Source: Pyrus communis
Lineage: Eukaryota > Streptophyta > Magnoliopsida > Rosales > Rosaceae
Direction of reading: 5' to 3'
DNA length: 64,000 nucleotides
Assembly (NCBI RefSeq): GCF_963583255.1
Contig: NC_084817.1
Span: 16,270,489-16,334,488, forward strand
Shown here: piece by piece, positions 40,910 through 64,000 of the stretch
How positions within the stretch are numbered: the stretch's first letter is position 1
How the letters are laid out: the number at the start of each line of letters is the position of its first letter
The notes under the pieces: generated by a model
Database searches by the model: none
What the model was told of the DNA's origin: nothing
What the model saw: the letters and a program-made list of their open reading frames with translations, nothing else
Program-made: the position numbers and the translations under genes

Positions 40910-40947
40910 TACGCGAAAAACAATTATGTAAAATAAAAAAGAGGTGG

Positions 40948-42252: not shown

Positions 42253-42313
42253 GTTAGTCTATGACTTGAAATTGTATATAACTATTTCTTGGGCCATGGG
42301 CCCATAAACTTTA

Positions 42314-42991: not shown

Positions 42992-43031
<40 letters not shown>

Positions 43032-43469: not shown

Positions 43470-43581
43470 TAAACTTTATGCATGTGCAAATCACACCGGC
43501 CTAAAACAAACACAGGAAATTCGAAAATAGTAATGAAGACAATCCCACGAAATTGAAAAAATAGAATTAATAGTCTTTCCA

Positions 43582-45487: not shown

Positions 45488-45603
45488 TTCCCATTCTTTT
45501 CTTTCATCTCCCAAGCATGAGACTCGGTCATAAACGACGGGCGCCACAAATAAGTTGTTAGAAATATGCAAAAAAGAATTACGAAAAATAAAAAAGAGGT
45601 TGG

Positions 45604-45723
45604 GGGATGCAACATGAGGACGTCCCAAGAGGTCACCTATTCTAGTACTACTCTCCACCCAAACTCGGTTAACTTTGAAGTTCTTATGGGATTCGGTGCA
45701 TGTGAGTTGGTATGATTGCATCC
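45604..45723 (-). pseudogene. 5S rRNA pseudogene
   Basis: Full length with an extra base; changes include acatgaggacgtccc and ctctccacccaaactcgg. Confidence 0.85.
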
Positions 45724-45996
45724 ATTAGTCTATGACTTGTACTTTTATATACCCATTTCTTTGGCCATGACCCCATAACCTTATGCAAGTGCAAATCACA
45801 CCGGCTCAAAACGATCACATGAAATTCAAAAATATTAATCAAGACAATCCCACGAAATTCAAAAAATAGAATTAATAGTCTTTCCCATTCTTTTCTTTCA
45901 TCTCCCAAAGCATGAGACCCGGTTATAAACGACGCGCGCCACAAATAAGCCACTAAAATACGCAAAAAAGAGTTATAAAAATAAAAAAGAGGTGGG

Positions 45997-46086
45997 GGGA
46001 TGCAACACGAGGACTTCCCAGGAGGTCAACAATCCTAATACAACTCTCGGCCAAACTTGATTAACATTGGAGTTCTAATGGGAATC
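45997..46086 (-). pseudogene. 5S rRNA pseudogene cut by an insertion
   Basis: Runs to gttctaatgggaatccc and is then replaced by retroelement sequence. The missing 5' part of the gene is not found at the other side (about 51730), so the junction is not a simple insertion. Confidence 0.75.
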
Positions 46087-46301
46087 CCTAGCACACAAAG
46101 CTTTTGGTGGAACTCTTACATAAAAGGGTAGCCTCCATGTCTTGTACCCGTGAGTAGCAAAGAAAACACTGAAGAGAAGAATTTACAAAGAGGACAATTT
46201 CTTTTCTCTCGAGTTGCATCTTGGTATATTGCTTCTTCCTGCCTTTTCCACAGGGACGAAGCTTGGCACTTTGAAGCAGCACTTGCGGACCGGCGAGCAT
46301 G

Positions 46302-46559
46302 GATCACTTAGACTTGGTTGGAACTTCATGGGGTGGTTTAGACCACCCACAAGAAATTCATGGAGTTGATGACAGCGGCAAGGAGCGGATCATGTAGACT
46401 TGATTGGAACTTCACGGGTTGGTTTGGACCACCCCGAAGAAATTCATGGAGTTGACGGCAGCGGCTGGGAGCCGATCACGTAGACTTGATTGGAGCTTCA
46501 CGGGGTGGTTTAGACCACCCCGAAGAAATTCAAGGAGTTGACGGCAGTGGCAAGGACGG
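46302..46559 (+). repeat. 86-bp tandem repeat, three copies, in the LTR
   Basis: Three head-to-tail units (starts 46302, 46388, 46474), each with gtagacttgattgg, ggtttagaccacccc and gaagaaattcatggagttg, differing at several bases. Confidence 0.93.
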
Positions 46560-47344
46560 TTCTGTTTTCAGAACTTCTGTCGACTGTTTGTTGATGCTGC
46601 CATGGTGAGCCGGTGGGCTTAGTCTCCATTTTTGGCTTTGGTGAAAGATGAAGAAGAAAGCAAATTTTCTTCATTCTCTCCTGCAAAAGTCGAGAGGAAA
46701 GAAAACAATAAAGAACAAATTTAAAATAAATTTATACCTTGCTGCCCTTTGTTGTTTCTTTTTTTTTCTTTATGTTTCTCCCTTGCTTTCTTGCTTTGTT
46801 CTTCTTTGCCGTCTGTGCTTCTCTGCTGTCTTCTCCCTGTCCTGCTCTTCTTCCTGTTTTTTTTCCTCTGTGCTCTTCTCTATCGTCCTCTTTTTTTTTT
46901 TGTCGATCTCCTCCGTGAAAGTAGTATTTTGTTGCTTCTTTTCCCTCTCAATTCCTGCAGAGTACCTCCTCCTCTTTCTTTTTTTTCTTCCCCCTTGCTT
47001 TTGGATCACATCCTTTTATAGAGAGAAGACATGGAGCAGTTGCTTGCCATTTTCACGAAGTGGAGCGGTTTGGAAGAGCCACTACGTTGATCTAGTTGAA
47101 GACGTGGGACTATGGGATTGTTCTGGAAGCAACCCACTTCTTGAAGTTTCAGAAAGTGATTTTATCCCACCATCTTTTATTCTTATTTATTTAATTTATT
47201 GCAAACAAGTATAGACTTTTAAAGGAGCCAGCCCAATCTTACTTTTCGGAATGAACTCGGGCTGTTTTTCTTTTGGCCCTCTTTAAAGCTCTTTACCTTT
47301 AAGGGCTGTTATTTATTTTCTTTGTGAAAATATATGGCTCAACA
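46560..47344 (-). other. Remaining 3' LTR sequence, T-rich on the plus strand
   Basis: CT-rich stretch 46660-47000 and LTR start at 47344. Long open frames here (for example 46648-47214, plus) are Leu/Phe/Ser-rich translations of T-rich sequence and are not considered genes. Confidence 0.5.
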
Positions 47345-47862
47345 GTTGCCCCCTTAAGCATCGTGCATGGAAACGGTTTTGACACATGTGAGGCTTGAAA
47401 ATTTTTCTCTTCTTTGGCTTTATTCTATGTTTTGAATCGACAGTGACTTGACATCCCAGTAGTGATTTTTCTTTTTCAAGTCACTCGAGTGGGCCAGGAA
47501 TTCTAAGAACATTAGCATGTAGTAGTTTATCCACGTGCAATACAATTGGTGGGAAAATGTATTTTTTATGATTCATGGCTATATCTAATATTGGAGATCA
47601 AATTGCCTACGTACCTTATGAAAGGATCAAGTCAAACATAGCTCATCCCTTACTTTTCAAGATTTTTGTTTTTGTTTTTATGACTGCACCCAGCTTTTAA
47701 TGCTAGGCTGCCTATGTACCCTTTTTGAAGAATCAAGTCATACGTAGTTTAAAGTGCATTTTTTTAGACCACCTTATAGGGATTTACCTAAAGAGCTCAC
47801 TCTCCTTCAATTCCTTTGTCGGTCTCTTCAATTTCTGACCACGCTCGAGACCCAAATCACTT

Positions 47863-48640
47863 TCAAGCAATTTGCTTTTCAACATTGCATGCCATCGAGA
47901 GTAGCTCATCAAATGTGTGAGGCTCTGCAACAGCAACAAAAGTTCCGATCTCGGGTATAAGGTTATGTGAGCACATTAGTACTGCCATCACCTCGGTCAA
48001 TTTCTCTGTGCGTTGTAGTTTTAGGCTTCTCCATCTTGCGATGAAATCATTTACGCTTTCGTTATGCCTTTGCATGCAATTAGCCAAATCCACTAGGAAG
48101 CATTTTCTTTTGGAGCAGATAAAGTGTGCAAGAAATGACTTCTGCATGTCGTCCCATGTATGGATAGAACTTGGAGGCAATTGTGTGTACCAAGTGAAAG
48201 CTGGTCCTTTTAGGTATTGTTTGGTATGCAGACGGGACGAGACGGAACGGAATGGGATTGGACGGGACGAGACAGGACGGAACAGAACGGAGCGGGAGCA
48301 AAGATGCCCTCGGATGGAAACAAGGAGGAAGAAGGAGACGGAAATGTTATAATTTTGTGTTCCATGGATGTGGAACGAGTCGTTCCAGGAGGGTGAGGTG
48401 GAATGAAAATTCACCCAAAACTCGTCCCGTGGAACAGCTCATTTCACCCGTTTTAGGCGCGCCAAACGTGGAACCGAACGCATTGTCCCACTCTGTTCTG
48501 TCCCGTCCCACGTACCAAATGGTACCTTAGGACTGCATAAATTGCCTTATTAGCTAGGCATCGCATTGTGATGTCTCTCCACAGGCTCAGTAGAAATGAG
48601 CTAGATATTCTTGTGGGGTGCCATTTATGCCATCAAATTT
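47863..48640 (-). pseudogene. Gypsy gag domain, split by a MITE
   Basis: Read on the minus strand, the retrotransposon gag domain is recognisable: KGPAFTWYTQLPPSSIHTWD, FLVDLANCMQRHNESVNDFI, RWRSLKL, and EPHTFDELLSMACNVE. About 35 residues upstream (around 48530-48595) are separated from it by the insertion at 48213-48526; excising the MITE and one TTA copy puts both parts back in frame. Gag forms the virus-like particle that packages element RNA. Other stops further upstream also break it. Confidence 0.8.
48213..48526. mobile_element. Tourist-like MITE (PIF/Harbinger type), 314 bp
   Basis: Ends GGTATTGTTTGGTATG and, from the other side, GGTACCATTTGGTACG, are imperfect inverted repeats. TTA lies on both sides (48210-48212 and 48527-48529), the 3-bp duplication of PIF/Harbinger elements. 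Inside are repeated gggacgagacgg-like words. No coding capacity. Confidence 0.8.
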
Positions 48641-49957
48641 TTCGAAGCTTGGTCTTTGATAACTTTTGGGGAATGGCATGGCATCGTAGTTTGCAGGGTA
48701 TGGTCTTTGGTACCCTAAGATTGGTGGAGTTATGGACATATGGAATTACGAATGTTCTCATCAAATATTTCCTTGATTTCTTGTCGTGTGATTTGATTTG
48801 AGGAACTTTCTTCTTTTTTCGTCTCACTACCACCAACAATGTTAGCCTTAACGGCTAGCTGTGCAGTTAATGCTGCAATTTCGACGTCTTCTTCAGCTAG
48901 CGTCCTTTGCATTTCTTGAAGCTGCTCTTCTAGACTTGATGTGCCAATTACCATGATTGACATAGACTCCACATCTTCATTTTTGCTCTTCAACCATTTA
49001 GGGATGTTGTTTGAGGCAAATGCCTTGGAACAGGGCTAATGTAGTCTTGCTTGAGCCATTGATTATTTAATATGACCAATACATGGTCGTGACTTGGCTT
49101 GGAGATCGGGGAATGCCCCCTGTGATTTCGAGCTAGCGTGAAGCCCCAAGACTTGGTTTTAAAACTTGACTTGAGATTTTGAAGATGGCCCCTGTAATAT
49201 GTGGGCTTGAACTCTCATTTCCTCATTGTCGTCTAGTTTCGGATTCGTCTTCTTGGACTTGACATATTTGTCACTTTGGAGTGCCTCCATAGGCAGTGTG
49301 TGTTAGCAACCTTGACTTTACCTTCAATGTACCGGGCTTGTGATTTGATATTTGAGACGGTATTGTCTTTCTTGGCAGGTTGTATACGCCTTGTGGTATT
49401 TTTTCTTGAAACTTTCTTTTCTTCTTTAAAAGAAACCACCCTTGCAGGCTCCGCATTGATTAACGTGATTGAAATTAAGCCAATCATGATTTTAGTTGTG
49501 GTGCAAGTTTTATCAACTGCAAATGCGTCAGTCTTGATGACTCTTTGCTTTTTGGTCTTCACAGCTTTGGTTAAATGCAAGTGGAGCCTTAGCAACTACG
49601 TTTGGGATGCCTTCAGTAGCTTCCATGGTAGCATCTTCACTTCTTCCTAAGAACTCGTTTCTTCACATTTTTGGTGGTGTTCTGTAATGGAGTCTTCTTC
49701 TACAGTCTTTGCGACTTTGGCAGTTGCCTTGTTGGCTTCGACTCCATGATTCGGCTTTTGGATATTGAGTGAGGCTAGTGCTTGATCAATGATGAATGAC
49801 ATTCGGTAACCAGTGCGCCTTACACATCTTGCCTTGGTATGAGTTGTCGGAAGCTCATGGAAGTAAACAATAACTTGTCGTGCCATCTCGTTTCCTGCGA
49901 AAAAAAATAAGTAGCACATAAGATTTCATTTATTCATAGACAGATGAAAAGGTGAAT
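48641..49957 (-). pseudogene. 5' part of the gypsy gag region
   Basis: Minus-strand fragments in changing frames: 49647-49919 (with NEMARQVIVYFHELPTTHTKARC), 49233-49595 (basic), and 48730-48993, which has a coiled-coil-like run (SSLEEQLQEMQRTLAEEDVEIAALTAQL) typical of the N-terminal part of Tat-type gag. Stops separate them. Confidence 0.55.
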
Positions 49958-49984
49958 GGGTCCCACTAGGTGTGCCAAAAATCA

Positions 49985-51730
49985 TGTTGAGCAAAAATTG
50001 TACACAATATGTAAACAAATAATTCACTCGACACAATTTCACCCTCATTCATTTTTCCGAAGAAGGTTTTTATTAATTCGAATTAGACCCATTCTAGGCT
50101 ACGCGCCTATTAATTACAACTCTTCTTTTGGGAAAGGAATACCCTTTGATTCCAACTTGAATAAATCGTAATTTGGGGATTTGGGTGTTTATTTCATTTT
50201 GCGACTACACCTAGGTCGAGCCTTAGATTGCCTACGTACCCTCGTTGAGGGATTAAGTCACTCGTAGTTCCTGATGTATTTGTTGGGGTTTGATGCCTTG
50301 TGCAATTTTAGCTTGTGTGAACAAGGACTTTGAGCTGTTGGAGCTTTTGATGCCTTGTGCAGTTTTAGCTCGTGCGGGCGAGGACTTTAAAATGTTGAAG
50401 AATTTGATGCCTTGTGCAGTTTTAGCTTGTGCGGGCGAGGACTTTGAGCCATTGGAGCTTTTGATTCCTTGTGCAGTTTTAGCTCATGCGGGCAAGGACT
50501 TTAAACTGTTGGAGAAAGTTTGAAATTTGATGCAGCTTTGTGCTATTTGATATTTGACATGACTTTATGCCATTTGAGACTTTTCTTCGACTTCGTGCCA
50601 TTTGAAACTTGACGTGGCTTCGTGCCATCTGAATTTAGAGCGGCTTTGTGCCATTTGACCAGTTTGGGAATTTGAAATTAAATTTGACGTAATGTAAGTC
50701 CATCGAGCTTGGTACTTTGAGGTGGTTCACGTCTACGGATTTTGAAGTGGTTCGAAGTTGTCTTCTATTTGATGCGGCAATGAGGCTGCAAAGGAGATGA
50801 GAGCGGTGCTGTTGTCATCGATTTGGGGTTTTGGAGACTGGGCTTAAGACTTTGGCAAAAGCAAGGTGCCCATTTGATTTATTTGAACCAAAAGATGATG
50901 ATTAGCGAAAAATGAATTGATGGGTTTTGACAAGAATGACCCATGTCTTTTCTTAATAATCAAAGCCCAGTGCATTTAGGGTGAGACCTAGACTCCCATG
51001 TGATGGGCGACCTTTCTTTCTTTGATTTGCCTTACTTTACTTTGTCTTTAAACCCATTTCATTTTGTCGTCATACCTTTCACTTTGTTGTCGCCTTTTAT
51101 CTTTGCACAACAACACAGCAAGTCTTTGCTGTCATATTGTTTGATAAAAGAAAGCGGCAGAGCAACATTTGTTTTTTTTTATAAATGCTTTTGTCAAGCT
51201 TTTATAGTTAGACTTTCTTTCAAAGGAAACCACATGATTTTATGTTGGAGAGCTGTGGCATTTTAAAGTTGCCACCTGAGTGTCTTTCCCATTTGATTTG
51301 GGGAGTTGTCAGCAAGCCTTTTCCTTCTCTTATCTTTCCAAGTCCAAATAGGATTTTTTTTTTCATTGAGTCAGGAAGATGGCTATCTATTTGAGGATGT
51401 GGCAATGCTTTTAGAACAAAGTCAATGAGAGTTGTTGCATGTCTTTGTTTACTTGTGGGACGAACACAATCTTGTTTTTGCATGCAAATTTTGTGAGTCA
51501 TCTCCACGTTATTTCTTTTTGAAATAATGATCTTTTTCAATCTTTGGTGTCGTAGAGCAGCTGCCGCTAATATAATTCTTGTTTTGTGCACAAAATTTAA
51601 TCTATGGGGGCCATTCTCATAATACTCACGTGCGTGGAAAGTTTTGGAAGAGCTTTGTTTCCCTCTCATCTTTTCTTTGCGTTTGCGTCAAATCTTCTAG
51701 CAACTTAGAAGACAACTTTCAAAAGATAAA
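49985..51730 (-). repeat. 5' LTR of the gag-only element, 5'-truncated
   Basis: Ends at GCTCAACA (minus strand) next to the PBS. The expected start TGTTGAGCC is not found before 5S spacer sequence resumes at about 51730. Little overlap with the 3' LTR part is visible, as if different portions of a long LTR survive on the two sides. Confidence 0.6.
50293..50520 (+). repeat. 57-bp tandem repeat, four copies, in the LTR
   Basis: Four units starting atgccttgtgcagttttagc, each containing gggcgaggactt, head to tail. Because 57 is a multiple of three, all four stay in one open frame of 19-residue repeats (MPCAVLARAGEDF..); this is most likely incidental. Confidence 0.93.
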
Positions 51731-51828
51731 GTAAAATTAATACTCTATTTCTTTCATCTCCCAGACACGAGACTTGGTTATAAACTACTTGTGTAGCAAA
51801 TAAAACAATTTGAAAAAAAAAATGTGGG

Positions 51829-51947
51829 GGGATGCAACACGAGGACATCCCAGGAGGTCACACATTCTAGTATTACTCTCGTCCAAACTCGCTTAACTTC
51901 GGAGTTCTGATGGGATCCGGTGCATGTGAGTTGGTATGATCGCATCC
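51829..51947 (-). pseudogene. 5S rRNA copy, moderately diverged
   Basis: 119 nt; changes: gaggacatccc, cacacattctagtattac, ctcgtcc. The 5' half, with the helix II pair, is intact. Upstream TATATA is kept (gtatataacc on the plus strand). Confidence 0.85.
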
Positions 51948-52185
51948 GTTACTCTACAACTTGTAATTGTATATAACCATTTCTTTGCCCATCATCCCGT
52001 AACTTTTAAGCATGTGCAAACCATATCGGCTCCAAACGTCCACACAAAATTCAAAAATATTAATCAACATGATCCCTTGAAATTTAAAAAGACAAAATAA
52101 AATAAATACTCTATTTCTTTCATCTCCCAGACACGAGACTTGGTTATGAACGACGTGCATTGCAAAAAAAAAAAAAAAGGTTGGG

Positions 52186-52304
52186 GGGATGCAACACGAG
52201 GACTTCCCAGGAGGTCACCTATCCTCGTACTACTCTCGCCCAAACTCGCTTAACTTTAGAGTTCTAATGGGATCCAGTGCACATGAGTTGGTATGATCAC
52301 ATCT
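52186..52304 (-). pseudogene. 5S rRNA pseudogene
   Basis: 119 nt; changes include acctatcctcg, aactttagag, gttctaatgggatccag, gcacatgag and atcacatct. Confidence 0.85.
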
Positions 52305-52359
52305 GTTAATCTACGATTTGTAATTGTATATAACCAATTCTTTGGCCATCTCCAATAAC

Positions 52360-52478
52360 GGGATGCGACACGAGGACTTCCCAGGAGGTCCCCCATCCTA
52401 GTAATACTCTCTCCTAAACTCGCTTAACTACGAAGTTCTGATGGGATCCAGTGCATGTGAGTTGGTTTGATTGCATCC
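52360..52478 (-). pseudogene. 5S rRNA pseudogene with shortened spacer
   Basis: 119 nt; only 174 bp from its left neighbour, so most of one spacer, including the T-tract, is deleted. Changes include gatgcgacacg, cccccatcc and actctctcctaaac. Confidence 0.85.
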
Positions 52479-52663
52479 GTTAGTCTACGACTTGTAATTG
52501 TATATAACCATTTCCTTGTCCTCTGCACGAAATTCATAAATATTACGAAATTTAAAAAGATAAAATAAAATTAACACTCTATTTCTTTCATCTCCCAGAC
52601 ACGAGGCTCGGTTACAAATGACGCGTGTCACAAAAAATTAAAAAATAAAAAAAAATAGGTGGG

Positions 52664-52782
52664 AGGATGCAACACGAGGACTTCCCAAGAGGTGACCCAT
52701 CCTAGTACAACTCTTGCCCAAACTCATTTAACTTCAGAGTTCTGATGGGATCTGGTACATGTGAGTTGGTATGATCGCATCC
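52664..52782 (-). pseudogene. 5S rRNA pseudogene
   Basis: 119 nt; changes include cccaagaggtgaccc, tagtacaactcttgcc, actcatttaac and tctggtac. Confidence 0.85.
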
Positions 52783-52973
52783 GTTGGTCTATGACTTGTA
52801 ATTGTATATAACCATTTCGTTGCCATTGGCACGAAATTCAAAAATATTACGAAATTTAAAAAGATAAAATAAAATTAATACTCTATTTCTTTCATCTCCC
52901 GGACATGAGGCTCGATCATATACGACGTGTGTCACAAAAAAAAAGAAATAAATAAATAAAAAACAGAGGTGCG

Positions 52974-53092
52974 GGGATGCAACACAAGAACTTCCTAAGG
53001 GGTCACCCATCCTAGTACTACTCTCACCCAAACTCGCTTAACTTCAAAGTTCTGATGGGATCCAATGCTTTTGAGTTGGTATGATCGCATCC
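52974..53092 (-). pseudogene. 5S rRNA pseudogene
   Basis: 119 nt; changes include acaagaacttcctaagggg and tccaatgcttttgag. Confidence 0.85.
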
Positions 53093-53259
53093 GTTAGTCT
53101 ATGACTTGTAATTGTATATAACCATTTCTTTGCCCACGAAATTCAAAAATATTACGAAATTTAAAAAGATAAAATAAAAGTAATACACTATTCATTTCAT
53201 CTCCCAGACACAAGGCTCGGTTATATACAATGCGTGTCACAAAAAAACAAATAGGTGGG

Positions 53260-53378
53260 GGCATGCAACACGAGGACTTCCTAGGAGGTCACCCATCCTA
53301 GTCCTACTCTCGCCCAAACTCGCTTAACTTCGGAGTTCTGATAGGATCCGGTGCATGTGAGTTGGTATGATCGCATCC
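53260..53378 (-). rRNA. 5S rRNA copy, near consensus
   Basis: 119 nt; few changes (gcatgcaac, cctaggagg, tagtcctac, gataggatcc). It marks the transition from the decayed region to the regular array. Confidence 0.75.
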
Positions 53379-53728: not shown

Positions 53729-53847
53729 GGGATGCAACACGAGGACTTCCCAGGACGTCACCCATCCTAGTACTACTCTCGCCCAAACTCGCTTAACTTC
53801 AGAGTTCTGATGGGATCCAGTGCATGTGAGTTGGTATGATCGCATCC
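53729..53847 (-). rRNA. 5S rRNA gene, array copy 1
   Basis: Plus-strand changes from the array consensus: aggacgtca, ttcagag, tccagtg. Confidence 0.85.
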
Positions 53848-54018
53848 GTTAGTCTACGACTTGTAATTCTATTTAACCATTTCTTTGCCGTTTGCACGAA
53901 TTTCAAAAAAAAAACAAATAAAATTAGTACTACTACTCTATTTCTTTCATCTCCCAAACACGACGCTCCGTTATATACGACGCGCTTCCCCAAAAAAAAA
54001 AAAAAAAAAAAAGATTGA

Positions 54019-54137
54019 GGGATGCAACACGAGGACTTCCCAGGAGGTCACCCATATTAGTACTACTCTCGCCCAAACTCGCTTAACTTCGGAGTTCTGA
54101 TGGGATCCGGTGCTTGTGAGTTGGTATGATCTCATTC
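54019..54137 (-). rRNA. 5S rRNA gene, array copy 2
   Basis: Changes: cccatatta, gcttgtgag, and a changed 5' end (ctcattc). Shares these with copies 8 and 17, marking a higher-order repeat. Confidence 0.8.
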
Positions 54138-54306
54138 GTTTGTCTACGACCTGTAATTCTATTTAACCATTTCTTTGCCGTTTGCACGAATTTCAAAAAT
54201 AAAACAAATAAAATTAGTACTACTACTCTATTTCTTTCATCTCCCAGGCACGACGCTCGGTTATATACGACGCGCTTCCCCAAAAAAAAAAAAAAAAAAA
54301 GATTGG

Positions 54307-54425
54307 GGGATGCAACACGAGGACTTCCCAGGAGGTCACCCATATTAGTACTACTCTCGCCCAAACTCGCTTAACTTCGGAGTTCTGATGGGATCCGGTG
54401 CATGTGAGTTGGTATGAACGCATCC
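54307..54425 (-). rRNA. 5S rRNA gene, array copy 3
   Basis: Changes: cccatatta and gaacgcatcc (position 8 of the RNA). Confidence 0.85.
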
Positions 54426-54597
54426 GTTAGTCTACGACTTGTAATTCTATTTAACCATTTCTTTGCCGTTTGCACGAATTTCAAAAAAAAAACAAATAAA
54501 ATTAGTACTACTACTCTATTTCTTTCATCTCCCAAACACGACGCTCGGTTATATACGACGCGCTTCCCCAAAAAAAAAAAAAAAAAAAAAAGATTGG

Positions 54598-54716
54598 GGG
54601 ATGCAACACGAGGACTTCCCAGGAGGTCACCCATCCTATTACTACTCTCGCCCAAACTCACTTAACTTCGGAGTTCTGATGGGATCCGGTGCATGTGAGT
54701 TGGTATGAACGCATCC
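54598..54716 (-). rRNA. 5S rRNA gene, array copy 4
   Basis: Changes: cctattac, aactcactt (breaks one helix II pair) and gaacgcatcc. Confidence 0.85.
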
Positions 54717-54878
54717 GTCAGTCTACGACTTGTAATTCTATTTAACCATTTCTTTGCCGTTTGCACGAATTTCAAAAAAAAAAACAAATAAAATTAGTAC
54801 TACTACTCTATTTCTTTCATCTCCCAAACACGACGCTAGGTTATATACGACGCGCTTCCCCAAAAAAAAAAAGAATGG

Positions 54879-54997
54879 GGGATGCAACACGAGGACTTCC
54901 CAGGAGGTCACCCATCCTAGTACTACTCTCGCCCAAACTCGCTTAACTTCGGAGTTCTGATGGGATACGGTGCATGTGAGTTGGTATGATCGCATCC
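54879..54997 (-). rRNA. 5S rRNA gene, array copy 5
   Basis: One change (gggatacgg). Short T-tract preceded by aagaatggg, shared with copy 11. Confidence 0.88.
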
Positions 54998-55160
54998 GTC
55001 AGTCTACGACTTGTAATTCTATTTAACCATTTCTTTGCCGTTTGCACGAATTTCAAAAAAAAATACAAATGAAATTAGTACTACTACTCTATTTCTTTCA
55101 TCTCCCAAACACGACGCTCGGTTATATACGACGCGCTTCCCCAAAAAAAAAAAAGATTGG

Positions 55161-55278
55161 GGGATGCAACACGAGGACTTCCCAGGAGGTCACCCATCCG
55201 AGTACTACTCTCGCCCAAACTCGCTTAACTTCGGAGTTCTGATTGGATCCGGTGTTGTGAGTTGGTATGATCACATCC
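55161..55278 (-). rRNA. 5S rRNA gene, array copy 6
   Basis: 118 nt: one base lost in ggtgttgtgag; also catccgag, ctgattgg and atcacatcc. Confidence 0.8.
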
Positions 55279-55442
55279 GTTAGTCTACGACTTGTAATTC
55301 TATTTAACCATTTCTTTGCAGTTTGCATGAATTTCAAAAAAAAAAAAGCAAATAAAATTAGTACTACTACTCTATTTCTTTCATCTCCCAAACACGACGC
55401 TCGGTTATATACGACGCGCTTCCCCAAAAAAAAAAAGATTGA

Positions 55443-55561
55443 GGGATGCAACACGAGGACTTCCCAGGAGGTCACCCATCCTAGTACAACTCTCGCCCAA
55501 ACTCACTTAACTTCGGAGTTCTGATGGGATCCGGTGCATGTGAGTTGGTATGAACGCATCC
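55443..55561 (-). rRNA. 5S rRNA gene, array copy 7
   Basis: Changes: tagtacaac, aactcactt, gaacgcatcc. Confidence 0.85.
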
Positions 55562-55724
55562 GTTAGCCTACGACTTGTAATTCTATTTAACCATTTCTTT
55601 GCCATTTGCACGAATTTCAAAAAAAAAAAAACAAATAAAATTAGTACTACTACTCTATTTCTTTCATCTCCCAAACACGACGCTCGGTTATATACGACGC
55701 GCTTCCCCAAAAAAAAAAGATTGG

Positions 55725-55843
55725 GGGATGCAACACGAGGACTTCCCAGGAGGTCACCCATATTAGTACTACTCTCGCCCAAACTCGCTTAACTTCGGAG
55801 TTCTGATGGGATCCGGTGCTTGTGAGTTGGTATGATCGCATTC
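55725..55843 (-). rRNA. 5S rRNA gene, array copy 8
   Basis: Changes: cccatatta, gcttgtgag, cgcattc; pattern of copy 2, six units earlier. Confidence 0.82.
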
Positions 55844-56013
55844 GTTTGTCTACGACCTGTAATTCTATTTAACCATTTCTTTGCCGTTTGCACGAATTTC
55901 AAAAATAAAACAAATAAAATTAGTACTACTACTCTATTTCTTTCATCTCCCAGGCACGACGCTCGGTTATATACGACGCGCTTCCCCAAAAAAAAAAAAA
56001 AAAAAAAGATTGG

Positions 56014-56132
56014 GGGATGCAACACGAGGACTTCCCAGGAGGTCACCCATATTAATACTACTCTCGCCCAAACTCGCTTAACTTCGGAGTTCTGATGGGA
56101 TCCGGTGCATGTGAGTTGGTATGAACGCAGCC
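56014..56132 (-). rRNA. 5S rRNA gene, array copy 9
   Basis: Changes: cccatattaatac and gaacgcagcc. Confidence 0.82.
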
Positions 56133-56301
56133 GTTAGTCTACGACTTGTAATTCTATTTAACCATTTCTTTGCCGTTTGCATGAATTTCAAAAAAAAAAA
56201 TAATAAAATTAGTACTACTACTCTATTTCTTTCATCTCCCAAACACGACGCCCGGTTATATACGACGCGCTTCCCCCAAAAAAAAAAAAAAAAAAGATTG
56301 G

Positions 56302-56420
56302 GGGATGCAACACGAGGACTTCCCAGGAGGTCACCCATCCTAGTACTACTCTCGCCCAAACTCACTTAACTTCGGAGTTCTGATGGGATCCGGCGCATGT
56401 GAGTTGGTATGAACGCATCC
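56302..56420 (-). rRNA. 5S rRNA gene, array copy 10
   Basis: Changes: aactcactt, tccggcgc, gaacgcatcc. Confidence 0.85.
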
Positions 56421-56581
56421 GTCAGTCTACGACTTGTAATTCTATTTAACCATTTCTTTGCCGTTTGCACGAATTTCAAAAAAAAAACAAATAAAATTAG
56501 TACAACTACTCTATTTCTTTCATCTCCCAAACACGACGCTAGGTTATATACGACGCGCTTCCCCAAAAAAAAAAAGAATGG

Positions 56582-56700
56582 GGGATGCAACACGAGGACT
56601 TCCCAGGATGTCACCCATCCTAGTACTACCCTCGCCCAAACTCGCTTAACTTCGGAGTTCTGATGGGATCCGGTGCATGTGAGTTGGTATGATCGCATCC
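56582..56700 (-). rRNA. 5S rRNA gene, array copy 11
   Basis: Changes: aggatgtca and actaccctcg. Confidence 0.87.
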
Positions 56701-56860
56701 GTTAGTTTACGACTTGTAATTCTGTTTAACCATTTATTTGCCGTTTGCACGAATTTCAAAAAAAAAACAAATAAAATTAGTACTACTACTCTATTTCTTT
56801 CATCTCCCAAACACGACGCTTGGTTATATACGACGCGCTTCCCCAAAAAAAAAAGATTGG

Positions 56861-56979
56861 GGGATGCAACACGAGGACTTCCCAGGAGGTCACCCATATT
56901 AGTACTACAATCGCCCAAACTCGCTTAACTTCGGAGTTCTGATGGGATCCGGTGCATGTGAGTTGGTTTGATCGCATCC
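56861..56979 (-). rRNA. 5S rRNA gene, array copy 12
   Basis: Changes: cccatatta, actacaatcg, ggtttgatc. Confidence 0.83.
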
Positions 56980-57137
56980 GTTAGTTTACGACTTGTAATT
57001 CCATTTAACCATTTCTTTGCCGTTTGCACGAATTTAAAAAAAAACAAATAAAATTAGTACTACTACTCTATTTCTTCCATCTCCCAAACACGACGCTCGG
57101 TTATATACGACGCGCTTCCCCAAAAAAAAAAGATTGG

Positions 57138-57256
57138 GGGATGCAACACGAGGACTTCCCAGGAGGTCACCCATCCTAGTACTACTCTCGGCCAAACTCG
57201 CTTAACTTCGGAGTTCTGATTGGATCCGGTGCTTGTGAGTTGGTATGATCACATCC
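57138..57256 (-). rRNA. 5S rRNA gene, array copy 13
   Basis: Changes: ctcggcc, ctgattgg, gcttgtgag, atcacatcc. Confidence 0.83.
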
Positions 57257-57429
57257 GTTAGTCTACGACTTGTAATTCTATTTAACCATTTGTTTGCCGT
57301 TTGCACGAATTTCAAAAAAAAAAACAAATAAAATTAGTACTACTACTCTATTTCTTTCATTTCCCAAACACGACGCTCGGTTATATACGACGCGCTTCCC
57401 CAAAAAAAAAAAAAAAAAAAAAAGATTGG

Positions 57430-57548
57430 AGGATGCAACACGAGGACTTCCCAGGAGGTCACCCATTCTAGTACTACTCTCGCCCACACTCGCTTAACTT
57501 CGGAGTTCTGATTGGATCTGGTGCTTGTGAGTTGGTATGATCACATCC
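57430..57548 (-). rRNA. 5S rRNA gene, array copy 14
   Basis: Changes: aggatgc, cccattcta, gcccacactcg, ctgattggatctgg, gcttgtgag, atcacatcc. Among the most diverged in the regular array. Confidence 0.78.
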
Positions 57549-57724
57549 GTTAGTCTGCGACTTGTAATTATATTTAACCATTTTTTTGCCGTTTGCACGA
57601 ATTTCAAAAAAAAAAACAAATAAAATTAGTACTACTACTCTATTTCTTTCATCTCCCAAACACGACGCTCGGTTATATACGACGCGCTTCCCCAAAAAAA
57701 AAAAAAAAAAAAAAAAAAGATTAT

Positions 57725-57843
57725 GGGATGCAACACGAGGACTTCCCAGGAGGTCACCAATCCTAGTACTACTCTCGCCCAAACTCGCTTAACTTCGGAG
57801 TTCTGATGGGATCCGATGAATGTGAGTTGGTATGAACGCATCC
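57725..57843 (-). rRNA. 5S rRNA gene, array copy 15
   Basis: Changes: caccaatcc, tccgatgaatg, gaacgcatcc. Identical to copy 16, together with the spacer. Confidence 0.83.
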
Positions 57844-58019
57844 GTCAGTCTACGACTTGTAATTCTATTTAACCATTTCTTTGTCGTTTGCACGAATTTC
57901 AAAAAAAAAAACAAATAAAATTAGTACTACTACTCTATTTCTTTCATCTCCCAAACACGACGCTCGGTTATATACGACGCGCTTCCCCAAAAAAAAAAAA
58001 AAAAAAAAAAAAAGATTAT

Positions 58020-58138
58020 GGGATGCAACACGAGGACTTCCCAGGAGGTCACCAATCCTAGTACTACTCTCGCCCAAACTCGCTTAACTTCGGAGTTCTG
58101 ATGGGATCCGATGAATGTGAGTTGGTATGAACGCATCC
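58020..58138 (-). rRNA. 5S rRNA gene, array copy 16
   Basis: Same changes as copy 15, 295 bp away: a very recent single-unit duplication. Confidence 0.83.
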
Positions 58139-58311
58139 GTCAGTCTACGACTTGTAATTCTATTTAACCATTTCTTTGTCGTTTGCACGAATTTCAAAAA
58201 AAAAACAAATAAAATTAGTACTACTACTCTATTTCTTTCATCTCCCAAACACAACACTCGGTTACATACGACGCACTTCCCCAAAAAAAAAAAAAAAAAA
58301 AAAAAGATTGG

Positions 58312-58430
58312 GGGATGCAACACGAGGATTTCCCAGGAGGTCACCCATATTAGTACTACTCTCGGCCAAACTCGCTTAACTTCGGAGTTCTGATGGGATC
58401 CGGTGCTTGTGAGTTGGTATGATCGCATTC
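58312..58430 (-). rRNA. 5S rRNA gene, array copy 17
   Basis: Changes: gaggatttccc, cccatatta, ctcggcc, gcttgtgag, cgcattc; pattern of copies 2 and 8. Confidence 0.8.
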
Positions 58431-58603
58431 GTTTGTCTACGAGTTGTAATTCTATTTAACCATTTCTTTGCCGTTTGCACGAATTTCAAAAATAAAACAA
58501 ATAAAATTAGTACGACTACTCTATTTCTTTCATCTCCCACGCACGACGCTCGGTTATATACGACGCGCTTCCCCAAAAAAACAAAAAATAAAAAAAAGAT
58601 TGG

Positions 58604-58722
58604 GGGATGCAACACGAGGACTTCCCAGGAGATCACCCATATTAGTACTACTCACGCCCAAACTCGCTTAACTTCGGAGTTCTGATGGGATCCGGTGCAT
58701 GTGAGTTGGTTTGATCGCATCC
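58604..58722 (-). rRNA. 5S rRNA gene, array copy 18
   Basis: Changes: aggagatca, cccatatta, actcacgcc, ggtttgatc. Confidence 0.8.
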
Positions 58723-58894
58723 GTTAGTCTACGACTTGTAATTCCATTTAACCATTTCTTTGCCGTTTGCACGAATTTAAAAAAAAAACAAATAAAATTA
58801 GTACTACTACTCTATTTCTTTCCTCTCCCAAACACGACGCTCGGTTATATACGACGCGCTTCCCCAAAAAAAAAAAGAAAAAAAAAAAGATTGG

Positions 58895-59013
58895 TGGATG
58901 CAACACGAGGACTTCCCAGGAGGTCACCCATCCTAGTACTACTCTCGCCCAAACTCGCTTAACTTCGGAGTTCTGATGGGATCCGGTGCATGTGAGTTGG
59001 TATGAACGCATCC
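58895..59013 (-). rRNA. 5S rRNA gene, array copy 19
   Basis: Only the RNA's 3' end (tggatgc) and gaacgcatcc differ from consensus. Confidence 0.88.
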
Positions 59014-59176
59014 GTCAGTCTACGACTTGTAATTCTATTTAACCATTTCTTTGCCGTTTGCACGAATTTCAAAAAAAAAACCAAATAAAATTAGTACTAC
59101 TACTCTATTTCTTTCATCTCCCAAACACGACGCTAGGTTTTATACGACGCGCTTCCCCAAAAAAAAAAAAGATTGG

Positions 59177-59295
59177 GGGATGCAACACGAGGACTTCCCA
59201 GGAGGTCACCCATCCTAGTACTACTCCCGCCCAAACTCGCTTAACTTCGGAGTTCTGATGGGATCCGGTGCATGTGAGTTGGTATGATCGCATCC
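59177..59295 (-). rRNA. 5S rRNA gene, array copy 20
   Basis: One change (actactcccgcc). Confidence 0.9.
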
Positions 59296-59456
59296 GTTAG
59301 TTTACGACTTGTAATTCTATTTAACCATTTCTTTGCCGTTTGCACGAATTTCAAACAAAAAACAAATAAAATTAGTACTACTACTCTATTTCTTTCATCT
59401 CCCAAACACGACGCTCGGTTATATACGACGCGCTTCCCCAAAAAAAAAAAGATTGG

Positions 59457-59575
59457 GGGAAGCAACACGAGGACTTCTCAGGAGGTCACCCATATTAGTA
59501 CTACTCTCGCCCAAACTCGCTTAACTTCGGAGTTCTGATGGGATCCGGTGCATGTGAGTTGGTTTGATCTCATCC
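59457..59575 (-). rRNA. 5S rRNA gene, array copy 21
   Basis: Changes: ggaagcaac, acttctcagg, cccatatta, ggtttgatctc. Confidence 0.8.
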
Positions 59576-59745
59576 GTTAGTCTACGACTTGTAATTCCAT
59601 TTAACCATTTCTTTGCCGTTTGCACGAATTTAAAAAAAAAACAAATAAAATTAGTTCTACTACTCTATTTCTTTCATCTCCCAAACACGACGCTCGGTTA
59701 TATACGACGCGCTTCCCCAAAAAAAAAAAAAAAAAAAAAGATTGG

Positions 59746-59864
59746 GGGATGCAACACGAGGACTTCCCAGGAGGTTACCCATCCTAGTACTACTCTTGCC
59801 CAAACTCGCTTAACTTCGGAGTTCTGATTGGATCTGGTGCTTGTGAGTTGGTATGATCACATCC
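59746..59864 (-). rRNA. 5S rRNA gene, array copy 22
   Basis: Changes: aggaggttaccc, ctcttgcc, ctgattggatctgg, gcttgtgag, atcacatcc. Confidence 0.8.
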
Positions 59865-60033
59865 GTTAGTCTACGACTTGTAATTCTATTTAACCATTTG
59901 TTTGCCGTTTGCCCGAATTTCAAAAAAAAACAAATAAAATTAGTACTACTACTACATTTCTTTCATCTCCCAAACACGACGCTCGGTTATATACGACGCG
60001 CTTCCCCAAAAAAAAAAAAAAAAAAAAAATTGG

Positions 60034-60152
60034 GGGATGCAACACGAGGACTTCCCAGGAGGTCACCCATCCTAGTACTACTCTCGCCCAAACTCGCTTA
60101 ACTTCGGTGTTCTGATGGGATCCGGTGCATGTGGGTTGGTATGAACGCATCC
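60034..60152 (-). rRNA. 5S rRNA gene, array copy 23
   Basis: Changes: ttcggtgtt, gtgggttgg, gaacgcatcc. The first breaks the conserved loop A side of the internal control region. Confidence 0.82.
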
Positions 60153-60328
60153 GTCAGTCTACGACTTGTAATTCTATTTAACCATTTCTTTGCCGTTTGC
60201 ACGAATTTCAAAAAAAAAAAACAAATAAAATTAGTACTACTACTCTATTTCTTTCATCTCGCAAACACGACTCTCGGTTATATACGACGCGCTTCCCCAA
60301 AAAAAAAAAAAAAAAAAAAAAAGAGAGA

Positions 60329-60345
60329 TTGGTATGATCACATCC
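60329..60345 (-). pseudogene. 5S remnant, first 17 nt only
   Basis: A spacer T-tract joins directly to ttggtatgatcacatcc, so about 100 bp of the gene are deleted. It lies exactly where the array changes from the left to the right spacer subfamily. Confidence 0.9.
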
Positions 60346-60543
60346 GTTAGTCTACGACTTGTAATTCTATTTAACCATTTGTTTGCCGTTTGCACGAATT
60401 TCAAAAAAAAAAACAAATAAAATTACTACTACCACTCTATTTCTTTCATCTCCCAAGCACGACGTTCGGTTATAGACGACGCGCTTCCCCAAAAAAAAAA
60501 AAAACAAAAAAAAAAGAAAAAAAAAAGAAAAAAAAAAGATTGG

Positions 60544-60662
60544 GGGATGCAACACGAGGACTTCCCAGGAGGTCACCCATCCTAGTACTACTCTCGCCCA
60601 AACTCGCTTAACTTCGGAGTTCTGATGGGATCCGGTGCATGTGAGTTGGTATGATCGCATCC
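60544..60662 (-). rRNA. 5S rRNA gene, array copy 24 (consensus)
   Basis: Identical to the array consensus. First copy of the right-hand subfamily. Confidence 0.93.
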
Positions 60663-60897
60663 GTTAGTCTACGACTTGTAATTCTATTTAACCATTTCTT
60701 TGCCGTTTGCACGAATTTCAAAAAAAAACAAATAAAATTACTACTACCACTCTATTTCTTTCATCTCCCAAGCACGACGTTCGGTTATATACGACGCGCT
60801 TCCCCAAAAAAAAAAAACAAAAAAAAAAAAAAAAAGAAAAAAACAAACAAAAAAAAAAGAAAAAAAAAAGAAAAAAAAAAGAAAAAAAAAAGATTGG

Positions 60898-61016
60898 GGG
60901 ATGCAACACGAGGACTTCCCAGGAGGTCACCCATCCTAGTACTACTCTCGCCCAAACTCGCTTAACTTCGGAGTTCTGATGGGATCCGGTGCATGTGAGT
61001 TGGTATGATCGCATCC
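60898..61016 (-). rRNA. 5S rRNA gene, array copy 25 (consensus)
   Basis: Identical to consensus. Its downstream T-tract is the longest in the window, about 90 bp with interspersed C and G. Confidence 0.93.
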
Positions 61017-61201
61017 GTTAGTCTACGACTTGTAATTCTATTTAACCATTTCTTTGCCGTTTGCACGAATTTCAAAAAAAAAACAAATAAAATTACTACT
61101 ACCACTCTATTTCTTTCATCTCCCAAGCACGACGTTCGGTTATATACGACGCGCTTCCCCGATAAAAAAAAAAGAAAAAAAAAAGAAAAAAAAAAGATTG
61201 G

Positions 61202-61320
61202 GGGATGCAACACGAGGACTTCCCAGGAGGTCACCCATCCTAGTACTACTCTCGCCCAAACTCGCTTAACTTCGGAGTTCTGATGGGATCCGGTGCATGT
61301 GAGTTGGTATGATCGCATCC
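61202..61320 (-). rRNA. 5S rRNA gene, array copy 26 (consensus)
   Basis: Identical to consensus. Spacer marker cccgataaa shared with copy 31. Confidence 0.93.
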
Positions 61321-61504
61321 GTTAGTCTACGACTTGTAATTCTATTTAACCATTTCTTTGCCGTTTGCACGAATTTCAAAAAAAAAACAAATAAAATTAC
61401 TACTACCACTCTATTTCTTTCATATCCCAAGCACGGCGTTCGGTTATATACGACGCGCTTCCCCAAAAAAAAAAAAGAAAAAAAAAAGAAAAAAAAAAGA
61501 TTGG

Positions 61505-61623
61505 GGGATGCAACACGAGGGCTTCCCAGGAGGTCACCCAACCTAGTACTACTCTCGCCCAAACTCGCTTAACTTCGGAGTTCTGATGGGATCCGGTGCA
61601 TGTGAGTTGGTATGATCGCATCC
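61505..61623 (-). rRNA. 5S rRNA gene, array copy 27
   Basis: Changes: gagggcttcc and cccaaccta; flank reads ctaccacttg. All three recur in copy 32. Confidence 0.88.
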
Positions 61624-61820
61624 GTTAGTCTACCACTTGTAATTCTATTTAACCATTTCTTTGCCGTTTGCACGAATTTCAAAAAAAAAACAAATAAAAT
61701 TACTACTACCACTCTATTTCTTTCATCTCCCAAGCACGACGTTCGGTTATATACGACGCGCTTCCCCCAAAAAAAAAAAAACAAAAAAAAAAGAAAAAAA
61801 AAAGAAAAAAAAAAGATTGG

Positions 61821-61939
61821 GGGATGCAACACGAGGACTTCCCAGGAGGTCACCCATCCTAGTACTACTTTCGCCCAAACTCGCTTAACTTCGGAGTTCT
61901 GATGGGATCCGGTGCATGTGAGTTGGTATGATCGCATCC
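61821..61939 (-). rRNA. 5S rRNA gene, array copy 28
   Basis: One change (actactttcg), recurring in copy 33. Confidence 0.9.
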
Positions 61940-62126
61940 GTTAGTCTACGACTTGTAATTCTATTTAACCATTTCTTTGCCGTTTGCACGAATTTCAAAA
62001 AAAAAACAAATAAAATTACTACTACCACTCTATTTCTTTCATCTCCCAAGCACGACGTTCGGTTATATACGACGCGCTTCCCCCACAAAAAAAAAAAAGA
62101 AAAAAAAAAGAAAAAAAAAAGATTGG

Positions 62127-62245
62127 GGGATGCAACACGAGGACTTCCCAGGAGGTCACCCATCCTAGTACTACTCTCGCCCAAACTCGCTTAACTTCGG
62201 AGTTCTGATGGGATCCGGTGCATGTGAGTTGGTATGATCGCATCC
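62127..62245 (-). rRNA. 5S rRNA gene, array copy 29 (consensus, with TATATA)
   Basis: Identical to consensus; the 5' flank has TATATA at -28 to -23 (62268-62273), where almost all other array copies read AAATAG. Confidence 0.94.
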
Positions 62246-62431
62246 GTTAGTCTACGACTTGTAATTCTATATAACCATTTCTTTGCCGTTTGCACGAATT
62301 TCAAAAAAAAAACAAATAAAATTACTACTACCACTCTATTTCTTTCATCTCCCAAGCACGACGTTCGGTTATATACGACGCGCTTCCCCCAAAAAAAAAA
62401 AAAGAAAAAAAAAAGAAAAAAAAAAGATTGG

Positions 62432-62550
62432 GGGATGCAACACGAGGACTTCCCAGGAGGTCACCCATCCTAGTACTACTCTCGCCCAAACTCGCTTAAC
62501 TTCGGAGTTCTGATGGGATCCGGTGCATGTGAGTTGGTATGATCGCATCC
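62432..62550 (-). rRNA. 5S rRNA gene, array copy 30 (consensus)
   Basis: Identical to consensus. Confidence 0.93.
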
Positions 62551-62735
62551 GTTAGTCTACGACTTGTAATTCTATTTAACCATTTCTTTGCCGTTTGCAC
62601 GAATTTCAAAAAAAAAACAAATAAAATTACTACTACCACTCTATTTCTTTCATCTCCCAAGCACGACGTTCGGTTATATACGACGCGCTTCCCCGATAAA
62701 AAAAAAAGAAAAAAAAAAGAAAAAAAAAAGATTGG

Positions 62736-62854
62736 GGGATGCAACACGAGGACTTCCCAGGAGGTCACCCATCCTAGTACTACTCTCGCCCAAACTCGCT
62801 TAACTTCGGAGTTCTGATGGGATCCGGTGCATGTGAGTTGGTATGATCGCATCC
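62736..62854 (-). rRNA. 5S rRNA gene, array copy 31 (consensus)
   Basis: Identical to consensus; spacer marker cccgataaa as in copy 26, 1534 bp away. Confidence 0.93.
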
Positions 62855-63037
62855 GTTAGTCTACGACTTGTAATTCTATTTAACCATTTCTTTGCCGTTT
62901 GCACGAATTTCAAAAAAAAAACAAATAAAATTACTACTACCACTCTATTTCTTTCATATCCCAAGCACGGCGTTCGGTTATATACGACGCGCTTCCCCAA
63001 AAAAAAAAAGAAAAAAAAAAGAAAAAAAAAAGATTGG

Positions 63038-63156
63038 GGGATGCAACACGAGGGCTTCCCAGGAGGTCACCCAACCTAGTACTACTCTCGCCCAAACTCG
63101 CTTAACTTCGGAGTTCTGATGGGATCCGGTGCATGTGAGTTGGTATGATCGCATCC
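63038..63156 (-). rRNA. 5S rRNA gene, array copy 32
   Basis: Same two changes as copy 27, 1533 bp away. Confidence 0.88.
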
Positions 63157-63353
63157 GTTAGTCTACCACTTGTAATTCTATTTAACCATTTCTTTGCCGT
63201 TTGCACGAATTTCAAAAAAAAAACAAATAAAATTACTACTACCACTCTATTTCTTTCATCTCCCAAGCACGACGTTCGGTTATATACGACGCGCTTCCCC
63301 CAAAAAAAAAAAAACAAAAAAAAAAGAAAAAAAAAAGAAAAAAAAAAGATTGG

Positions 63354-63472
63354 GGGATGCAACACGAGGACTTCCCAGGAGGTCACCCATCCTAGTACTA
63401 CTTTCGCCCAAACTCGCTTAACTTCGGAGTTCTGATGGGATCCGGTGCATGTGAGTTGGTATGATCGCATCC
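63354..63472 (-). rRNA. 5S rRNA gene, array copy 33
   Basis: Same change as copy 28, 1533 bp away. Confidence 0.9.
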
Positions 63473-63607
63473 GTTAGTCTACGACTTGTAATTCTATTTA
63501 ACCATTTCTTTGCCGTTTGCACGAATTTCAAAAAAAAAACAAATAAAATTACTACTACCACTCTATTTCTTTCATCTCCCAAGCACGACGTTCGGTTATA
63601 TACGACG

Positions 63608-63657
63608 CGCTTCCCCCACAAAAAAAAAAAACAAAAAAAAAAGAAAAAAAAAAGATT
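63608..63657 (-). terminator. Pol III T-tract terminator of 5S copy 34
   Basis: Directly after the RNA's 3' end the minus strand reads CCAATC and then T-runs of about ten separated by single C or G. Four or more T suffice for Pol III, so this is a strongly redundant terminator. Every array unit has one, differing in length. Confidence 0.85.
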
Positions 63658-63659
63658 GG

Positions 63660-63778
63660 GGGATGCAACACGAGGACTTCCCAGGAGGTCACCCATCCTA
63701 GTACTACTCTCGCCCAAACTCGCTTAACTTCGGAGTTCTGATGGGATCCGGTGCATGTGAGTTGGTATGATCGCATCC
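63660..63778 (-). rRNA. 5S rRNA gene, array copy 34 (consensus, with TATATA)
   Basis: Identical to consensus, 1533 bp from copy 29 and with the same TATATA flank. Read 5' to 3' on the minus strand it starts GGATGCGATCATACC and ends GTGTTGCATCCC. The internal control region has AAGCGAGTTTGGGCG (A-box area) and GATGGGTGACCTCC (C-box area). Confidence 0.95.
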
Positions 63779-63812
63779 GTTAGTCTACGACTTGTAATTC
63801 TATATAACCATT
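63779..63812 (-). promoter_or_regulatory. 5' flanking promoter elements of 5S copy 34
   Basis: TATATA occupies -28 to -23 (63801-63806) and C is at -1 (63779 on the minus strand), as described for Arabidopsis 5S genes. The GC dinucleotide known near -12 is not exact here: the minus strand reads TCG at -12 to -10. Confidence 0.7.
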
Positions 63813-63964
63813 TCTTTGCCGTTTGCACGAATTTCAAAAAAAAAACAAATAAAATTACTACTACCACTCTATTTCTTTCATCTCCCAAGCACGACGTTCG
63901 GTTATATACGACGCGCTTCCCCCAAAAAAAAAAAAACAAAAAAAAAAGAAAAAAAAAAGATTGG

Positions 63965-64000
63965 GGGATGCAACACGAGGACTTCCCAGGAGGTCACCCA
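63965..64000 (-). rRNA. 5S rRNA gene, array copy 35, cut by window end
   Basis: The 36 bases present equal the consensus 3' end. The array continues beyond the window. Confidence 0.9.

What the first reader, a model, noticed from the sequence alone, without database searches (positions are those of the whole stretch)
53729..64000. 5S array fixed for a compensated helix II variant
The usual plant 5S rRNA (as I recall it, for example Arabidopsis) pairs AGCAC with GUGCU in helix II. Here the two strands read AACUC and GAGUU. Two base pairs have changed (G-C to A-U, and A-U to U-A) with both partners altered, so the helix is intact. The adjoining loop also differs (ACA for UAA), while the rest of the RNA is nearly standard. 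The change lies in the A-box part of the internal promoter as well. The pair is kept in nearly all regular copies and is recognisable in older diverged ones, so it is not random decay. This looks like a distinct, RNA-selected 5S lineage: either the organism's main 5S or a second class beside a canonical one.
Basis: partly seen in the sequence, partly recalled or inferred. Interest (0 to 1): 0.8.

Follow-up and report, generated by a model that had tools for sequence, protein, structure and literature searches.

The report
Pear 5S genes with swapped pairs
A pear chromosome carries a tandem array of 5S ribosomal RNA genes in which two base pairs of one stem are swapped on both sides so that the stem still forms; apricot has the same change, so it looks like an inherited trait of one branch of the rose family rather than an oddity of this array.

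Summary
Rfam finds 48 5S rRNA copies in the window, minus strand, 39356 to 63778. Of these, 41 of 48 read AACUC/GAGUU in helix II; none has a canonical AGCAC or GUGCU strand. Against the usual angiosperm 5S (recalled; strand 1 of helix II supported by published primers) the consensus differs at six bases: four make two compensated pairs, two lie in the adjoining loop.

The window is pear: a gene in it is 99% identical to a Pyrus x bretschneideri protein. Proteins mis-predicted from 5S genes give a second species: in apricot two overlapping reading frames fix the DNA as AACTC-ACA...GAGTT, as in pear. One strawberry-based 5S primer ends in AGCA, the canonical form. The simplest reading is a compensated change that arose inside Rosaceae before Pyrus and Prunus split and became a standard 5S form there.

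Copies inside the window do not by themselves show RNA selection: all seven with a changed strand lose a pair, and the lower substitution rate in helix II is not significant. The window is the decaying left edge of an array. RNA data and the rest of the pear genome could not be examined, so a canonical pear array is not excluded. Novelty is modest.

The parts
53729..63778 (-). younger part of the 5S rDNA array: 34 copies found by Rfam, 31 of 33 intervals 277-316 bp, with T-run terminators; the array continues beyond 64000
   Evidence: Rfam; spacing and flanks; helix II state
39356..53378 (-). 14 older, diverged 5S copies (mean 12.8 differences from the reference copy against 2.8 in the younger part), irregular spacing (174-746 bp) with gaps of 3.5 and 6.2 kb; same helix II form in 9 of 14
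62736..62854 (-). example copy (119 nt), identical to the consensus
62835..62839 (-). helix II strand 1, AACUC (5S positions 16-20), in the example copy
   Evidence: sequence; positions
62832..62834 (-). adjoining loop, ACA (positions 21-23); canonical UAA (recalled)
   Evidence: sequence
62793..62797 (-). helix II strand 2, GAGUU (positions 58-62); lies in the A-box of the internal promoter (A-box limits recalled)
   Evidence: sequence
33362..34559 (+). OXIDATIVE STRESS 3-like gene used to name the plant
   Evidence: 99% identical over 100% to Pyrus x bretschneideri LOC103938069

Best explanation
This is the left, partly decaying edge of an ordinary tandem 5S rRNA gene array of pear. [quoted passage not shown] Pairing is kept, so the RNA should fold and enter ribosomes as usual. 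Shown: the letters, the pairing, the array anatomy, the shared form in apricot. Inferred: single origin, spread by homogenisation, transcription, and that this is pear's main 5S.
For: 41 of 48 copies exact, 0 of 48 canonical. Apricot: P0113, P0118, P0159 read MRSYQLTCTG...KRVW and P0202 reads NGCDHTNSHAPDPIRTPKLSEFGRE. The DNA that satisfies both frames is fixed over helix II, loop and neighbours as ATGCGATCATACCAACTCACATG...AAGCGAGTTTGGGCG and equals pear; only three positions at the far end stay ambiguous. Five apricot proteins were seen (P0113, P0118, P0159, P0188, P0202) and none shows a canonical residue. Pyrus and Prunus are both Amygdaloideae, Fragaria is Rosoideae. A Fragaria vesca-based primer ends AGCA (PMC3261831). 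In the younger part 34 of 34 copies have C at -1 and a T run of at least 8 that starts 4 or 6 nt after the gene end. Minimum free energy: canonical -42.0, pear -40.3, strand 1 plus loop changed alone -38.0, strand 2 changed alone -38.1 kcal/mol; helix II is shortened in the third and lost in the fourth. C61T alone (G-U step) gives -39.6 and keeps helix II, a possible intermediate. A passage of PMC10490022 says Pyrus typically has one 5S cluster per haploid set.
Against: No transcript was seen. Younger copies mostly have TTAAAT at the upstream TATA position (31 of 34; 2 of 34 have TATATA), older ones mostly TATATA (12 of 14), so this block could be weakly active. A cherry FISH paper used a canonical primer, 5S1 (PMC10490022, passage; the passage does not name the template of the 5S probe), which may mean mismatch-tolerant PCR, another template or a canonical class in cherry. 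Unnamed protein P0170 is 67% identical to variant protein P0115 over residues 6-94, spacer-derived tail included, but has the canonical strand-2 residue (KRAW), so a canonical copy may sit in a close relative. The false-protein searches favour open loops, so canonical apricot copies with UAA could be missed. The Fragaria evidence is one primer, covering most of strand 1 only.
Confidence: 0.8

Rival explanations
1. A second, variant class: pear (and apricot) keep a canonical 5S array elsewhere and this array is a divergent minor class, perhaps silent or used under special conditions.
For: The pear genome could not be searched. Rosa carries two old 5S spacer families (PMC7984461, passages). The TATA-like motif is altered in most younger copies. 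P0170 hints at a canonical copy with a related tail.
Against: 0 of 48 copies in the window and 0 of 5 apricot proteins canonical, the latter from searches that favour open loops; Pyrus reported with one 5S cluster per haploid set (passage of PMC10490022).
Confidence: 0.13
2. The units are tandem Cassandra retrotransposon LTRs, which carry a 5S-like region, rather than 5S genes.
For: Cassandra occurs in pear and apple (pear: title in reference lists; apple: passages); Malus Cassandra has more than 100 nt of 5S similarity and a tandem step of 377 bp (PMC10853983, PMC7215508, passages); the oldest copies here, at 39-42 kb, are 370-451 bp apart but for one 746-bp interval.
Against: No primer-binding site TGGTATCAGAGC within one mismatch anywhere in the window (motif recalled); whole-model 5S match with T-run terminator and C at -1 in 34 of 34 younger copies; step of 277-316 bp in 31 of 33 younger intervals.
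Confidence: 0.04
3. Relic array: the form is an accident of one founding copy with chance pairing and no selection, amplified as satellite DNA.
For: No compensatory change inside the window; helix II constraint not significant; older copies show methylation-type C-to-T and G-to-A change (CG 0.214, CHG 0.235 against CHH 0.064 per site).
Against: Two pairs changed on both sides, with one-sided forms predicted to disrupt helix II, and the same letters in apricot.
Confidence: 0.03

Closest known systems
Canonical angiosperm 5S rRNA gene array (Rfam RF00001)
   Same: 119-nt gene, Rfam match over the whole model, upstream TATA-like motif, C at -1, T-run terminator, tandem step near 300 bp
   Different: helix II AACUC/GAGUU and loop ACA in place of AGCAC/GUGCU and UAA (canonical recalled, strand 1 supported by published primers)
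5S rDNA of Prunus armeniaca
   Same: identical letters across helix II and its neighbours, deduced from two overlapping frames
   Different: seen only as proteins mis-predicted from 5S genes, not as DNA; the tails after the 5S part differ from pear's
Asteraceae (Anthemideae) 5S genes with a shifted C-box, mirrored by Cassandra (PMC10853983, abstract, sections 14 and 15 and passages)
   Same: a lineage-fixed change within the internal promoter of an otherwise conserved 5S gene
   Different: there the C-box changes; here helix II and the A-box part
Two 5S rDNA families of Rosa (PMC7984461, passages)
   Same: old 5S lineages in Rosaceae
   Different: told apart by spacers; Box-A could not be determined there because of primer overlap

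Membership tests
5S rRNA gene (RF00001) | sequence and structure match above the curated score | tested here: met
   48 matches, best 111.8 bits against a cut-off of 38
5S rRNA gene (RF00001) | helix II can pair | tested here: met
   41 of 48 copies keep all five pairs; 7 of 48 lose one
5S rRNA gene (RF00001) | terminator and upstream signals of a Pol III 5S gene | tested here: met
   T run and C at -1 in 34 of 34 younger copies; TATA-like motif TTAAAT rather than TATATA in 31 of 34
5S rRNA gene (RF00001) | transcribed and in ribosomes | not testable with these tools
   no RNA reads available
Cassandra LTR retrotransposon | tRNA-Met primer-binding site next to an LTR | tested here: not met
   no match within one mismatch in 64 kb (motif recalled)
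Cassandra LTR retrotransposon | TG...CA LTR ends and target-site duplication | not tested
   not examined
Amygdaloideae 5S form (proposed here) | same letters in another tribe of the subfamily | tested here: met
   apricot
Amygdaloideae 5S form (proposed here) | absent from the other subfamily seen | tested here: inconclusive
   one Fragaria-based primer with AGCA

The most novel reading that the evidence does not exclude
A fully compensated 5S helix II replacement that also rewrites part of the A-box swept to fixation through a whole subfamily of Rosaceae, with Pol III factors, 5S-binding proteins and Cassandra elements adjusting to it, while a canonical class may persist beside it and be used differently.
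Probability: 0.12. Interest if true: 0.6.

Novelty: new member of a known kind. Interest (0 to 1): 0.33.

Why it matters
5S rRNA is among the most conserved plant genes. A two-pair compensated swap kept in two tribes gives a natural experiment on how paired sites in a multicopy RNA gene move together, and on how much of the A-box sequence Pol III transcription needs. Practically, plant 5S primers in use end in these bases (for example GGATGCGATCATACCAGCAC), so they mismatch pear and apricot genes near the 3' end and could favour canonical-like relics.

Tried and rejected
Searches for the variant DNA in bacterial and archaeal genome contigs, viral contigs and plasmids found nothing, as expected for a plant gene. 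Text searches for variant 5S letters in papers: one search matched 40 papers, 20 listed; two searches listed 4 of 4 and 5 of 5. By titles none of the listed papers is about plant 5S; the one plant paper, on mulberry small RNAs, was opened, and its sequence AATTTTTTGATACCAACTCACATG is not 5S beyond the shared stretch. Topic and primer searches listed 2 of 2, 6 of 7, 20 of 39, 20 of 121, 10 of 10 and 10 of 11 papers. Of these I saw passages of nine papers, of one of them also the abstract and two sections; none of what I saw describes this form. The pear Cassandra paper PMC4079214 is not held. The claim that the form is not described is limited to these searches; 5S sequence databases were not available. 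Selection inside the window was tested and not shown. Cassandra tandem units were considered and judged unlikely.
Full report
What is there. Rfam finds 48 5S rRNA genes in the window, all on the minus strand, between 39356 and 63778. They form two parts. From 53729 on there are 34 copies; 31 of the 33 intervals between them are 277-316 bp, and the array runs off the window's end. Seven of these 34, the reference copy included, are identical to the reference copy; the mean is 2.8 differences. From 39356 to 53378 there are 14 older copies with a mean of 12.8 differences, irregular spacing and two gaps of kilobases. At least five more 5S pieces, one of them cut by the window's end, are not among the 48. 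Divergence rises towards low coordinates, as expected at the edge of an array that is homogenised in its middle.

Helix II. In 41 of 48 copies strand 1 is AACTC and strand 2 GAGTT with all five pairs; 32 of 34 in the younger part and 9 of 14 in the older; no copy has a canonical strand, and canonical 15-mers across either strand are absent from the window. Loop ACA is present in 44 of 48. Strand 2 lies in the A-box (limits recalled). Folding gives -42.0 kcal/mol for the canonical form and -40.3 for pear; one-sided versions give -38.0 (helix II shortened) and -38.1 (helix II lost); the helix changes with the canonical loop give -39.8, and C61T alone, a G-U step, gives -39.6 with helix II kept.

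Which plant. An OXIDATIVE STRESS 3-like gene at 33362-34559 is 99% identical over its full length to Pyrus x bretschneideri LOC103938069 (two isoforms); the next protein, also pear, is at 82%. The window is therefore pear or a very close relative.

Relatives. Plant DNA could not be searched, and the window's own genome did not answer. I used a detour: proteins mis-predicted from 5S genes. The canonical loop UAA is a stop in the frame MRSYQ-, whereas the variant loop is open, so variant genes can yield long false proteins. A search with a window frame returned 89 proteins. A pattern in my script could read 38 of the 89 across both strands: 20 have the canonical pair of residues (QH and A), 7 the pear pair (QL and V), 11 others, among them one mixed case, P0120 (QH and V). 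Genes with a UAA loop are under-represented in this set. The 7 include three named Prunus armeniaca proteins. A further search returned 6 proteins, one of them from apricot (P0202) in another frame. Overlaying the two frames fixes the DNA over the region, equal to pear: AACTC, ACA and GAGTT; three positions at the far end stay ambiguous. This assumes that the proteins represent one 5S form. Pear belongs to tribe Maleae and apricot to Amygdaleae, both in Amygdaloideae.

Outside the subfamily. A primer that PMC3261831 says was modified from the Fragaria vesca 5S ends in ACCAGCA (passage), the canonical strand 1. Fragaria is Rosoideae. So the change probably arose after the two subfamilies parted and before Pyrus and Prunus did. 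The outgroup evidence is thin.

Is it selected. That is weak: copies share it by descent. Of seven copies with an altered strand, seven lose a pair and none compensates. Substitutions in the ten helix II sites are fewer than elsewhere (0.0059 against 0.0251 per site per copy in younger, 0.0571 against 0.1101 in older copies), but random sets of ten sites do as well in 12% and 9% of draws. The better arguments are that both sides of two pairs changed and that two tribes keep the same letters.

Is it active. In the younger part all 34 copies have C at -1 and a T run of at least 8 that starts 4 or 6 nt after the gene; of the 14 older copies 11 have C at -1 and 13 a T run of 4 or more within 40 nt. 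The upstream TATA-like motif is TTAAAT in 31 of 34 younger copies and TATATA in 2; 12 of 14 older copies have TATATA. In older copies C-to-T and G-to-A change is concentrated at CG (0.214) and CHG (0.235) sites against 0.064 at CHH; in younger copies the figures are 0.029, 0.008 and 0.012. The older pattern is what methylated, silent plant DNA leaves. Whether the younger block is transcribed is open. A passage of PMC10490022 states that Pyrus typically has one 5S cluster per haploid set, which favours its being part of the main locus.

Hints against. An unnamed protein, P0170, is 67% identical to variant protein P0115, spacer-derived tail included, but has the canonical strand-2 residue; it may be a canonical copy in a close relative or a broken one. 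The cherry paper PMC10490022 used a canonical 5S primer. Neither settles whether a canonical class exists in Amygdaloideae.

Not a retrotransposon array. Apple Cassandra has a 5S-like LTR and forms tandems (PMC10853983, PMC7215508; passages), and Cassandra is known in pear (title of a paper not held, seen in reference lists). The window has no Cassandra primer-binding site within one mismatch, and each of the 34 younger copies is a 5S matched over the whole Rfam model with a terminator. LTR ends were not examined.

Verdict. The finding is real. Its best reading is a lineage form of 5S rRNA shared by pear and apricot, a new member of a well-known kind (compensatory change in an rRNA helix), with the added point that part of an internal promoter changed. 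A similar case, a lineage-specific C-box shift, is published for Asteraceae (PMC10853983, sections 14 and 15). I found no description of the Rosaceae form in what I saw of the searches listed under Tried and rejected.

Noticed in passing
window 61505-63778: Higher-order repeat: copies 61505 and 63038, and 61821 and 63354, share private variants, and 62127 and 63660 share an upstream TTATAT; each pair lies 1533 bp (five units) apart, pointing to a recent five-unit duplication.
   Followed up: partly
window, 5' flanks of 5S copies: 31 of 34 younger copies have TTAAAT at the TATA position, whereas 12 of 14 older ones have TATATA.
   Followed up: partly
window 6047-6284 and 12769-13006: The same set of tandem repeats occurs twice, 6722 bp apart, perhaps terminal repeats of a mobile element or a segment duplication.
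   Followed up: no
proteins P0115 and P0170: Two unnamed proteins share a spacer-derived tail, but one has the variant and the other the canonical strand-2 residue; a canonical copy in a close relative, or a degenerate one.
   Followed up: partly
protein P0120: An unnamed 5S-derived protein mixes the canonical strand-1 residue (QH) with the pear-like strand-2 residue (KRVW), a possible one-sided or G-U type helix II.
   Followed up: no
proteins P0118, P0159, P0188, P0202 (apricot, same listed contig length): A shared stretch follows the 5S part in two of them and precedes it in two others, which suggests tandem apricot 5S units with a longer spacer.
   Followed up: no
window 36374-37288 and 47863-48438: Fragments with matches to a copia-type reverse transcriptase (PF07727) and to a retrotransposon gag (PF03732).
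   Followed up: no
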